From contig NZ_JAPCID010000072.1 of the NCBI RefSeq assembly GCF_027587175.1, positions 1-34,534 on the forward strand: a stretch of 34,534 bases of DNA, read 5' to 3'. The notes under the pieces are model-generated. The model saw nothing but the letters and a program-made list of their open reading frames with translations, was not told the DNA's origin and did not search any database. This DNA is from Solirubrobacter deserti. GTDB lineage: Bacteria; Actinomycetota; Thermoleophilia; Solirubrobacterales; Solirubrobacteraceae. Below are positions 19,568 to 22,454 of this stretch, piece by piece; the stretch's first letter is position 1; each line of letters opens with the position of its first letter. Both the position numbers and the translations under genes were made by a program.

Positions 19568-20110
19568 CTAGCGGCCTTTGCGGGAGTTGTCGATCTTGCC
19601 GCTCTTGAGCTTGGCGGCGGCGGCGCGGACGGACTTGCGGGCGAACTTGGCGCCCTCCACGTCCCACATCTGGCACTTCTGGCCGTCGGCGGTGCAGACC
19701 TGGCCGAAGTGCATGTCCTTGCCGCCGACCGTGCCGCGCGTGCGGATCAGCCAGGTGCCGTCGGCCCGCTTGGAGTAGACGCTCGTGGTGCTGCCGTCCT
19801 CGAGGGTGGTCGTCTTCTCGGCGCTGACACCGCCGGCTTCCTCGATGGTCGCGAACGCCGTCTGCGGGTCGCCCTGGAACTTGATGCACGGCATGTCGTC
19901 GTCCTCGGGCTCGGTCCACTCGCAGGCGAGCGTCTTGACCGTGGTGCCGGCAGCATCGAAGACCTTGGCGTCGACCTTCACGAGCGGGAAGTCGGTCACG
20001 GGGGAGACCGACGGTGCGCCGGCGCCGCCGCCGGCGACCTGGGCTTCGGCGACGCCGCCGGTGGCGAGAAGTGCGGCTAGCGCGATGGCGGAGAGAGTGG
20101 GGATTCGCAT
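19568..20110 (-). CDS. Secreted protein of unknown function, 180 aa
   Basis: I do not recognise this protein. A signal peptide (about 1-23, ending GVAEA-Q) is clear. The mature part has four cysteines (LACEW, MPCIKF, QVCTADGQKC) that could form two disulfides, strand-like segments such as FPLVKVDAKVFDA and TWLIRTRGTVGG, and a very basic tail (KSVRAAAAKLKSGKIDNSRKGR in part). ATG 20110 is the natural start for the signal peptide; the frame is open further upstream. It lies head to head with the sigma-fusion gene. Confidence 0.75.
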   Translation of the reverse strand: MRIPTLSAIALAALLATGGVAEAQVAGGGAGAPSVSPVTDFPLVKVDAKVFDAAGTTVKTLACEWTEPEDDDMPCIKFQGDPQTAFATIEEAGGVSAEKTTTLEDGSTTSVYSKRADGTWLIRTRGTVGGKDMHFGQVCTADGQKCQMWDVEGAKFARKSVRAAAAKLKSGKIDNSRKGR

Positions 20111-20206
20111 ACCTTCCACGTCGGTCGCGCCGCCGCCCGGTGTCGCGTCATCAAAAGTTTTCCGAACCTGCGACACATCTCCTGAGATCGAGCGTCAGCC
20201 GTGTGG

Positions 20207-21487
20207 ATGTCAGACGACCGTGAGCACGACCGACGGCTCGCCGAACGCGCGGGCGGCGGCGACGAGCGGGCTTTCGACGAGCTCGTGGAACGCCACCAGA
20301 AACCACTGCTGCGCTACGTCGCGCGGCGCTTCCGGCCTGAGCTGGCCGAGGATGCGGTGCAGGAGGCGCTGCTCGCCGCGCACCGGGCGCTGATCGCCGG
20401 CACGCGCCCGGCCGACGTGCGCGCGTGGCTGTCCACGATCGCGTGGCGGCGAGCGCTGGACATCGCCCGGCGCGAGCGCGACGCGCTGCCGCTCGACGCG
20501 GGCGTCGCGGCGAAGGTGTCCGACGATCCCGAGGCGCGCGCGATGCAGGCGCACGAGCTCGACCGCGTGGTGAGCGCGATGTGCGAGCTGCCCGAGCGCC
20601 AGCGCACCGCGCTGAAGCTCAGCGCGCTCGAGGGGCGCTCGCTGGAAGAGATCGGGCACGCGCTCGACGTCGGCGCCGACACGGCCAAGTCGCTGGTGGC
20701 CCGCTCGCGCCGTACGCTCACGCACCGGCTCGCGGCGGCGGACATGGACTGCGGCGACGTGCGCCTGGAGATGGAGGCGGCGGCGCTGCGCGGCGTGCGG
20801 CTCTCGGGCACGGTGACGCTGCACCTCGACGGCTGCCGTGCCTGCGCGCGGGCGCACCGCGCGATCCGGCGCCGCCGCCGCGTGGCGCTGCTGATCCCGT
20901 TCGGCCTGATCGTGCGCACGGCGGGCATCCGCGACAAGTTGCGCGACCTGATCGCGTTCAACCCCGCGTGGGAGATGCACGCGACCGCTGCGAAGATGTG
21001 CACGGCCGCGTGCCTGACCGCGGTCGGCACGGGCGCGGTGGCGGCGCCGACGGTGACGGTCGCGGTGCCGCTGGTGGTCCAGACCGCGACGCCGACGCCG
21101 ATGAAGGCGAAGCTCGCCAAGAAGAAGAAGCGCGCCAAGCCCAGGGCGACGCCCACGCCGACCGCGACGGTCGTCGTGGCGCAGGCGACCCCGGTGTGGA
21201 CGCCGACGGCGAACCCGACGGCCGCGGCGAAGAAGAAGAAGAAGGCCGACCGGCAGCAGGTGCCCGAGTGGATGCGGCACAAGAAGCGGCCGCAGGTCGT
21301 GATGGCGGGCAGCGGCGAGTCCGGGCCGGGCGTCGTCAAGCCCAAGCGGACCCCGACGCCGGCCCCCACGCCCGTCGCGACCCCCACGCCCGCTCCCCCG
21401 GCCGCGACGCCGCCGCCGCCCGAGCCGACGCCGACGCCTCCGGCACCGGTCGAGACGCCGGCGGCGACGGCGACGCCGACCGGTTAG
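20207..21487 (+). CDS. ECF sigma factor fused to zinc-finger anti-sigma motif, membrane segment and Pro/Thr-rich tail
   Basis: This 426-aa chain starts with sigma region 2 (about 19-80: RAFDELVERHQKPLLRYVAR, LAEDAVQEALL, RAWLSTIAWRRALD) and region 4 (about 117-171: LPERQRTALKLSALEGRSLE, then VGADTAKSLVARSRR). Next comes an anti-sigma zinc-finger signature H206-x3-C210-x2-C213 (HLDGCRAC). A hydrophobic stretch (about 265-291, AACLTAVGTGAVAAPTVTVA) can span the membrane. The last ~135 residues are Pro/Thr repeats with Lys clusters. This predicts a membrane-held sigma factor whose own anti-sigma element and wall-facing tail are in cis. ATG 20207 or GTG 20201 may start it. Sigma regions are clear; topology is inference. 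Confidence 0.85.
   Translation: MSDDREHDRRLAERAGGGDERAFDELVERHQKPLLRYVARRFRPELAEDAVQEALLAAHRALIAGTRPADVRAWLSTIAWRRALDIARRERDALPLDAGVAAKVSDDPEARAMQAHELDRVVSAMCELPERQRTALKLSALEGRSLEEIGHALDVGADTAKSLVARSRRTLTHRLAAADMDCGDVRLEMEAAALRGVRLSGTVTLHLDGCRACARAHRAIRRRRRVALLIPFGLIVRTAGIRDKLRDLIAFNPAWEMHATAAKMCTAACLTAVGTGAVAAPTVTVAVPLVVQTATPTPMKAKLAKKKKRAKPRATPTPTATVVVAQATPVWTPTANPTAAAKKKKKADRQQVPEWMRHKKRPQVVMAGSGESGPGVVKPKRTPTPAPTPVATPTPAPPAATPPPPEPTPTPPAPVETPAATATPTG
21340..21483. repeat. Low-complexity Pro/Thr-coding repeat tract
   Basis: Loose repeats of ACGCCGACG/CCCACGCCC encode the (TP)n-rich end of the sigma-fusion protein. Its length may vary between strains. Confidence 0.55.
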
Positions 21488-21515: not shown

Positions 21516-22454
21516 ATGAGCCTCGACGAGATCACGTTCAACCGCGCGCTCGACGCCCACCGGCGTGAGCTGCACGTGCACTGTTACCGGATGCTCGGCT
21601 CCTTCGAAGAGGCCGAGGACGCGCTCCAGGACGCCTTCCTGCGCGCGTGGAAGGCGCGCGAGGGCTTTTCCGGCGGTGAAGGCCTGCGCGCGTGGCTGTA
21701 CAAGATCGCCACCAACACGTGCCTGGACGCCCTGCGCGCGAAGAAGCGGCGCGCACCCGCGCAGGGCGAGATCCCGTGGCTGCAGCCGTACCCGGACCGG
21801 CTGCTGGACGAGGTCGCGCCCAGCGAGCACGAGCCGGACGCGGTCGTCGTCGCGCGCGAGACGATCGAGCTCACGTACATGGCCGTCATCCAGCTGTTGC
21901 CGGCGCGCCAGCGCGCGGTGCTGGTGCTGCGCGACGTGCTCGAGTGGTCGGCGGCGGAGACGGCCGAGATCCTCGACCTGAGCGTGCAGGCGGCCAACAG
22001 CGCGCTGCAGCGGGCGCGGGCGACGCTCAAGGAGCGGCTGCCCGAGCGCCCGGAGGCGCGCGTCGAGCTCAGCGAGCCCGAGCAGCAGCTGCTGCGCGGG
22101 TTCATCGAGCACCACGAGAGCGGCGACTACGAGGCCGCGGCACAGCTCATGCGCGAGGACATCCGGGTCACGATGCCGCCGAACCCGGGCGAGTACGTGG
22201 GCCGGCAGGCGCTGCGCCCGCTGATCGCCAGCGCGCGCGAGATGGGCGAGTGGCGGCTGGTGGAGACGCGCGCGAACCGGATGCCCTGCGCCGCCTCCTA
22301 CCTGCGCCGCCCGGGCGACACGGTCTTCCGCGCGTTCAAGTTCGACGTGCTCCGGGTCGCCGACGGCGAGATCGCCGAGATCACCACCTTCGACTCCTCG
22401 CTCTTCAGCGCCTTCGGGCTGCCCGATGAATTGCCGGACGTGGCACGGTCTTAA
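21516..22454 (+). CDS. ECF sigma factor with SnoaL-like C-terminal domain (TIGR02960/SigG type)
   Basis: This 312-aa sigma factor has region 2 at about 1-75 ([40 protein letters not shown]) and region 4 at about 125-175 ([20 protein letters not shown], then [17 protein letters not shown]). A SnoaL-like NTF2-fold domain closes it (about 190-305, [20 protein letters not shown]). In this ECF class the C-terminal domain takes the place of a separate anti-sigma factor and modulates activity. ATG 21516 is preferred to TTG 21507. The VOC gene begins 5 nt after its stop, so the two are one operon. Regulon unknown. Confidence 0.92.

What the first reader, a model, noticed from the sequence alone, without database searches (positions are those of the whole stretch)
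20207..21487. Sigma factor, anti-sigma zinc finger, membrane span and wall-type Pro/Thr tail in one polypeptide
An ECF sigma (regions 2 and 4) is followed by an H-x3-C-x2-C anti-sigma signature, a hydrophobic span and ~135 residues of Pro/Thr/Lys repeats. This predicts a transcription factor anchored to the membrane in cis, with an outside tail that might sense the wall, and release by proteolysis or by zinc-finger change. Zinc-finger-fused ECF groups are known in actinobacteria, but the function of this type is poorly known.
Basis: partly seen in the sequence, partly recalled or inferred. Interest (0 to 1): 0.65.

Follow-up and report, generated by a model that had tools for sequence, protein, structure and literature searches.

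The report
Fused sigma switch with exported partner
A soil bacterium's gene switch carries its own brake and a possible membrane anchor in one protein, a layout already known elsewhere, but here it sits back to back with a gene for an uncharacterised exported protein that seems to share its promoter, which gives this poorly understood kind of switch a concrete partner to test.

Summary
Window 20207-21487 (+), from Solirubrobacter, encodes an ECF sigma factor, a C-x23-H-x3-C-x2-C finger, two weak hydrophobic segments and a 134-residue Pro/Thr/Ala/Lys tail. A membrane span is not clearly shown; the tail evolves almost freely, so tail sensing is unsupported.

Its homologues occur at 14 clear places in 146 family genomes; all 14 lie head-to-head with such a sigma gene, and these sigmas form one clade (100/97). 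Both genes carry one promoter pattern, YGWCAC-N16/17-CGWC, close before the start codon (11 of 12 sigma sides, 10 of 12 partner sides; shuffles about 0.1). Within the clade the finger was probably lost twice, while the partner and a [KR]xCxxxC motif are kept in 12 of 12.

Best reading: a self-contained envelope-signalling module with a small local regulon; a new variant of a known kind. Signal, topology, proteolysis and the partner's role are inferred.

The parts
20207..21487 (+). Fused ECF sigma / zinc-finger / hydrophobic segments / low-complexity tail gene (426 aa from the ATG)
   Evidence: orthologues
20282..20479 (+). Sigma region 2 (residues 28-93 from the GTG at 20201)
   Evidence: Pfam PF04542, 8.5e-10
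20561..20719 (+). Sigma region 4 (residues 121-173)
   Evidence: Pfam PF08281, 1.2e-9
20750..20845 (+). Finger C184-x23-H208-x3-C212-x2-C215
   Evidence: motif; four of 14 invariant columns in 32 finger-bearing members
20864..20932 (+). Hydrophobic segment A (222-244), weak, possibly interfacial
   Evidence: recalled dG scale 0.08; within the range of shuffles
20996..21064 (+). Hydrophobic segment B (266-288) with C267-x3-C271, candidate membrane span
   Evidence: dG 1.95; [KR]xCxxxC in 12 of 12 partnered sigmas, CxxxC in 1 of 31 unpartnered
21083..21484 (+). Pro/Thr/Ala/Lys low-complexity tail (295-428)
   Evidence: composition and pN/pS 0.83
19568..20110 (-). Divergent partner gene: 180-aa apparently exported protein with four Cys
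   Evidence: linkage; AF2 model
20170..20196 (+). Predicted sigma-gene promoter GCGACAC-N16-CGTC, 10 nt before the ATG
20120..20146 (-). Predicted partner-gene promoter GCGACAC-N16-CGAC, 9 nt before the ATG

Best explanation
This is a two-gene envelope-signalling module of Solirubrobacter and a few relatives. One polypeptide is both sigma factor and anti-sigma factor: the ECF domain is held inactive in cis by the zinc-finger helices and by tethering through the Cys-bearing hydrophobic segment B; the low-complexity tail is a spacer or stalk, probably outside the membrane. An envelope signal frees the sigma domain, most likely by regulated proteolysis as proposed for ECF52. The freed sigma then fires two back-to-back promoters of one consensus: its own (autoregulation) and that of the divergent gene, whose exported, probably disulphide-bonded protein is the module's main product and may feed back on the switch. 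Shown by sequence: anatomy, linkage, shared promoter pattern, clade, repeated finger loss. Inferred: cis inhibition, topology, proteolysis, recognition of these promoters by this very sigma, and the partner's role.
For: Sigma domains and finger. Partner homologues at 14 clear places in 146 family genomes, all 14 head-to-head with a fused sigma. The 12 non-redundant partnered sigmas are one clade, 100/97. YGWCAC-N16/17-CGWC on 11 of 12 sigma sides, 10 of 12 partner sides, 9 of 12 on both; shuffle means 0.14, 0.10, 0.001. With the start codon 9 nt downstream the pattern has 2 hits in the own genome, one of them the partner gene, and none in G002, which lacks the module. SH3 domain after the segments in paralogue L011. 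Published autoregulation and release model for SCO4117 (passages).
Against: Hydrophobic segments are within the range of shuffles and segment B is flanked by basic residues on both sides. AF2 is under 50 pLDDT beyond residue 222 and pTM is 0.39, so no cis complex is seen. The zf-HC2 Pfam model does not call the finger. 4 of 12 partnered sigmas lack the finger, so the finger is not essential to the module. The pattern was generalised from the same loci, and is missing on the C35 partner side, the G013a sigma side and, within 60 nt, the G013b partner side. A similar site lies upstream of another ECF gene in 5 of 5 Solirubrobacter genomes, so another sigma could read these promoters. M50 proteases are found in all 14 control genomes too, so their presence says little.
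Confidence: 0.5

Rival explanations
1. The exported partner is the sensor rather than the output: outside the cell it binds the tail or the membrane end of the sigma protein and locks or unlocks it, so that control moved to it and the finger became dispensable.
For: The partner was kept in 12 of 12 loci of the clade while the finger was lost in 4 of 12, about twice. A [KR]xCxxxC motif tracks with the partner (12 of 12 against 1 of 31). Sigma and partner genes are the only shared genes around the two own-genome copies on contigs C94 and C35 as read.
Against: No binding evidence. Ordinary targets of ECF factors are also often neighbours (ECF41, passages). The tail shows little sequence constraint. 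The sigmas are one clade, so the association is one origin, not many.
Confidence: 0.22
2. The full-length protein is cytoplasmic: the finger is a redox or metal switch and the basic tail binds nucleic acid, polymerase or polyphosphate.
For: Weak segments within the range of shuffles; Lys-rich tail; soluble anti-sigma domains are enriched in zinc motifs, about 72% (PMC7406223 passages).
Against: Two weak segments after the finger recur in most of the 26 family proteins scanned and are more hydrophobic than any stretch of three soluble control proteins; paralogue L011 has an SH3 domain beyond them; the partner looks exported.
Confidence: 0.15
3. The two genes are merely co-regulated by another ECF factor, for example the L010-type paralogue that has the same motif upstream; the sigma studied here has other targets.
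For: GCGACAC-N16-CGWC upstream of another ECF match in 5 of 5 Solirubrobacter genomes.
Against: The promoter pattern also occurs in the loci of G013 and G166 beside the partnered sigma clade, with small changes that follow the subtype (TGTCAC/CGTCAC in the finger-less subtype), as expected if the neighbouring sigma reads it. I did not look for L010-type genes in G013 or G166.
Confidence: 0.13

Closest known systems
ECF52 sigma factors (SCO4117 of Streptomyces coelicolor); ECF48 and ECF53 described alike
   Same: ECF sigma followed by zinc finger, membrane part and Pro-rich extension in one polypeptide; autoregulation and proteolytic release proposed (passages of PMC5826349; PMC8999054)
   Different: No carbohydrate-binding domain; different promoter pattern; obligate divergent exported partner; finger lost in part of the clade. 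ECF group models could not be run.
ECF41 (SigJ type; fused SnoaL_2)
   Same: Promoter TGTCACA-n16-CGTC resembles YGWCAC-N16/17-CGWC; neighbouring genes are the sole known targets (passages of PMC3426412)
   Different: C-terminal extension is SnoaL_2, absent here
IutY of Pseudomonas putida (ECF243)
   Same: Sigma and membrane-bound anti-sigma factor in one protein, activated by regulated proteolysis with Prc and RseP (passage of PMC8999054)
   Different: Iron cell-surface signalling with an outer membrane; part of an unrelated signalling system
Class I anti-sigma domains (zinc-binding, Hx3Cx2C)
   Same: Hx3Cx2C between second and third helix of the domain; zinc and non-zinc forms mix within groups (passages of PMC7406223)
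   Different: Fused in cis after sigma region 4; not called by Pfam zf-HC2

Membership tests
ECF (group 4) sigma factor | Sigma regions 2 and 4 only | tested here: met
   Pfam r2 and r4 above cut-off, TIGR02937 73.6 bits over cut-off 42.9; Foldseek ranks ECF sigma structures first
Zinc-binding class I anti-sigma domain | Hx3Cx2C spanning helix 2 and helix 3 | tested here: met
   Motif; AF2 helices 201-209 and 211-222 with H206, C210, C213 in ATG numbering, pLDDT about 56-68 per ten residues there; four-ligand pattern invariant in 32 finger-bearing members
Zinc-binding class I anti-sigma domain | Pfam zf-HC2 score above cut-off | tested here: inconclusive
   Not called in P0001; weak in two of ten other sigmas scanned, L006 12.3 and L009 11.2 bits against 22.2
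Zinc-binding class I anti-sigma domain | Packs against sigma 2 and sigma 4 | tested here: inconclusive
   AF2 pTM 0.39, low confidence beyond residue 222
ECF52 | Zinc finger, membrane region and Pro-rich extension after the sigma domain | tested here: inconclusive
   Finger and Pro-rich tail met; membrane region not clearly shown
ECF52 | Carbohydrate-binding domain at the C-terminus | tested here: not met
   No Pfam domain after the sigma regions at E <= 0.1
ECF52 / ECF48 / ECF53 | Phylogenetic placement in the ECF group | not testable with these tools
   Group models and the classification paper are not on hand
ECF41 | SnoaL_2-type C-terminal domain | tested here: not met
   None found in P0001; the downstream neighbour has it
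Sigma factors activated by regulated intramembrane proteolysis | Cleavage by site-1 and site-2 proteases | not testable with these tools
   M50 genes present, but also in 14 of 14 control genomes
Streptomyces subtilisin-inhibitor family (for the partner; lead from memory) | Shared fold | tested here: inconclusive
   Not among the 50 rows shown by Foldseek or by VIA-align

The most novel reading that the evidence does not exclude
A sigma/anti-sigma fusion whose inhibitory zinc finger has become optional because an exported, divergently encoded protein of an orphan family serves as its obligate extracellular sensor, acting on the CxxxC membrane segment or the tail; the sigma controls almost nothing but itself and that sensor.
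Probability: 0.22. Interest if true: 0.75.

Novelty: new variant of a known kind. Interest (0 to 1): 0.5.

Why it matters
Fused sigma/anti-sigma proteins with Pro-rich tails are known as a kind, but their signals and partners are poorly known. Here comparison of genomes names one constant partner gene, a promoter pattern and a dispensable finger, so the signalling question becomes a two-gene reporter experiment. It also points to an exported protein family without an assigned function.

Tried and rejected
Subtilisin-inhibitor-like fold of the partner (a guess from memory of that family): not supported. Foldseek best E was 0.06 and VIA-align Z at most 5.8, with unrelated rows, so no fold is assigned; this does not show a new fold. 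Pfam scans of 9 partner homologues gave only weak hits (best 0.022, Mago-bind, in 2 of 9). A profile hit to a de novo designed protein (4hxt, E 9e-6) is taken as chance. Carbohydrate- or wall-binding domain in the tail: none called. The finger against solved structures by sequence: nothing useful.

Weak partner matches in G112 (E 0.0087, 27 residues, no sigma match in the locus) and G244 (two partial hits inside long frames; their neighbours were not looked at) were rejected and not counted.

Pattern one search had a spacer one base too short and found nothing; it says nothing about the finger-less subtype's promoters and was not repeated.

Regulon search: GCGACAC-N16-CGWC has 21 sites in the own genome (reversed-pattern control 7) and 15, 15, 23 and 27 in G001, G003, G004 and G005 (controls 9, 14, 6, 8). 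The recurring ones that I recognised are the divergent pair (in G003 only its sigma side fits this exact pattern) and a site upstream of another ECF gene. I judged downstream frames only for the 21 own sites and did not test every site for orthology, so further targets are not excluded.

The first extraction of family proteins read minus-strand loci in the wrong orientation and was redone.

Literature: ECF + sigma factor + Thermoleophilia, 0 papers; Solirubrobacter + sigma factor, 9 papers, listing and abstract starts only, none on the topic by those; divergent/secreted terms, 12 papers, listing only; fused/Pro-rich terms, 122 papers, 15 listed. I saw no report of this module in those. The ECF re-classification paper (Casas-Pastor 2021, known from the review's references and from memory) is not held, so this group may already have an ECF number.

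Full report
What is there. The ORF at 20201-21487 (+) starts most plausibly at the ATG at 20207. Numbering is from the GTG at 20201 unless ATG numbering is stated. Pfam finds sigma region 2 (28-93) and region 4 (121-173) and nothing after them. After the sigma domain come C184, H208-x3-C212-x2-C215. The window is identical over 8,540 bp to a contig of Solirubrobacter sp. CPCC 204708.

The family. In 61 of 61 genomes searched (own plus 60 relatives) the protein has matches. Of 41 loci extracted, 37 carry H-x3-C-x2-C; the four without are L038, a true partnered relative, and L013, L026 and L029, other sigma proteins. In an alignment of 32 finger-bearing members 14 columns are invariant, and four of them are the ligand candidates. 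That alignment got 32 of 37 finger-bearing rows (five partial ones left out) and none of the finger-less ones, so the invariance holds among finger-bearing members only. The AF2 model of residues 1-300 (ATG numbering, five sequences) is good only in the sigma part: helices at 182-195, 201-209 and 211-222 put the motif between the second and third, but the model is under 50 pLDDT beyond residue 222 and pTM is 0.39. Foldseek ranks ECF sigma structures first.

Membrane span. Two hydrophobic segments follow: A (222-244) and B (266-288). On a recalled dG scale they score 0.08 and 1.95; a transporter of the window scores -1.69 to 0.23 in its eight best segments, three soluble proteins have best values of 3.18 to 4.88, and shuffles of residues 185-320 reach a median best of 1.95 with 5% at -0.17. 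A membrane span is therefore plausible, not shown. For a C-terminus outside: own-genome paralogue L011 has an SH3_4 domain above its cut-off after the same two segments, and a few paralogues have extra cysteines there. Against: basic residues flank segment B on both sides.

The tail. In six related tails P+T is 28-47% and K 6-13% (for S. soli, L130, the last 130 residues were used). The sequence is less kept: mean pN/pS over 15 pairs of six sequences is 0.83 in the tail against 0.33 in the sigma domain, 0.50 in the finger and 0.53 in the segments (uncorrected proportions, so rough). S. soli lacks the last part. This looks more like a spacer than a specific sensor.

The partner. Divergently from the sigma gene, 19568-20110 (-) encodes a 180-aa protein with an apparent signal peptide (judged by eye) and four cysteines. 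Among 12 homologues C63 and C75 are invariant; C139 and C146 are missing together in one, L146, which suggests that these two pair. No convincing Pfam family and no NCBIfam family was found. Its AF2 model has mean pLDDT 86-95 per ten residues over 41-150 (two strands, two helices, five strands, one helix). Foldseek and VIA-align gave no convincing relative, which does not show that the fold is new.

Linkage. A profile of nine partner homologues in 146 family genomes gave 9 genomes and 15 places. One place (G112) is rejected. The other 14, in 8 genomes, all lie head-to-head with a fused sigma gene. Two of the genomes are one species (G000 and G165), which leaves 12 non-redundant loci. In a class-wide draw of 399 genomes 7 had a match; outside the family only two partial hits in G244 appeared, which I rejected. 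G002, a congener without the partner, has no close relative of this sigma either (best match 32% identity).

One clade, finger lost about twice. In a maximum-likelihood tree of 44 sigma domains (12 partnered, 31 unpartnered, one outgroup) the partnered ones are one group, 100/97; several branches are long. 'Unpartnered' means that no partner homologue was found in the genomes searched, not all of which cover every row. The finger is absent in L038 and in L143-145, which lie in different subclades whose other members (L139, L146) keep it. All 12 partnered sigmas keep [KR]xCxxxC in the second hydrophobic segment; 1 of 31 unpartnered has CxxxC there, 26 of the 31 being at least 330 aa long. Relatedness makes the Fisher values of that call too small.

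Shared promoters. The gap between the two start codons is exactly 96 bp in six of the 12 loci, those of this subtype in Solirubrobacter. In five of these six both strands carry CGACAC-N16-CGWC, ending 10 nt (sigma) and 9 nt (partner) before the start codon; the sixth, the own C35 copy, has TGACAC on the sigma side and no match on the partner side. In the window these are the only two matches of CGACAC-N16/17-CGWC; 2.2 are expected by chance somewhere in the window, so the position is what counts. As YGWCAC-N16/17-CGWC within 60 nt of the start, the pattern is on the sigma side in 11 of 12 loci, on the partner side in 10 of 12 and on both in 9 of 12, against 0.14, 0.10 and 0.001 in 1,000 dinucleotide shuffles. 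Distances are 8-10 nt except one partner side (G166, 54 nt). The pattern was generalised from these loci, so the comparison is partly circular. With the start codon 9 nt downstream the pattern has 2 hits in the own 7.1-Mb genome, one of them the partner gene (reversed control 1), 2-3 in G001, G003, G004, G005 and G013, and none in G002. The predicted regulon is therefore small and local, though other targets are not excluded. One further site recurs: GCGACAC-N16-CGWC upstream of another ECF gene (L010 type in the own genome) in 5 of 5 Solirubrobacter genomes. This could be a cascade or a shared specificity, and leaves open which sigma reads the promoters.

Mechanism. Shown by sequence: the fused anatomy, the constant divergent partner, the shared promoter pattern, the single clade and the finger loss. 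Inferred: the finger helices hold the sigma domain in cis; segment B tethers it; a signal frees it, probably by proteolysis; it then drives itself and the partner. M50 (site-2 protease family) genes are present in the genome but also in 14 of 14 control genomes.

Comparison. The architecture is that of ECF48/52/53 and the release model is published for ECF52 (passages of PMC8999054 and PMC5826349). It lacks the carbohydrate-binding domain given for ECF52 and its promoter pattern differs from the putative one of SCO4117, so I do not file it there; it may work like one. The promoter resembles that of ECF41 (passages of PMC3426412), but there is no SnoaL domain. Zinc and non-zinc anti-sigma domains are known to mix within groups (passages of PMC7406223), so finger loss has precedent. 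The ECF group number could not be tested.

Verdict. What is new is the partner module. Interest 0.5; new variant of a known kind.

Noticed in passing
window 21516-22454 (+): Downstream neighbour is an ECF sigma with a SnoaL_2 domain (TIGR02960/SigX5, 333.9 bits over cut-off 264.75); it is also next door in L034, L035 and L036 but not beside the own C35 copy.
   Followed up: partly
L010 (G000:C11:41771-41797) and L156-L159: GCGACAC-N16-CGWC recurs upstream of another ECF gene in 5 of 5 Solirubrobacter genomes: a possible sigma cascade or shared specificity.
   Followed up: partly
L011 (G000:C22:98162-99352): Fused ECF paralogue with a bacterial SH3 domain after the two hydrophobic segments.
   Followed up: no
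L143, L144, L145, C-termini: The finger-less subclade's tails end in a shared CPRTQxALQxC stretch, a possible disulphide-bonded tip.
   Followed up: no
own genome G000: At least nine fused ECF sigmas with the finger among the 30 matches listed; six others examined had none and fifteen were not examined.
   Followed up: partly
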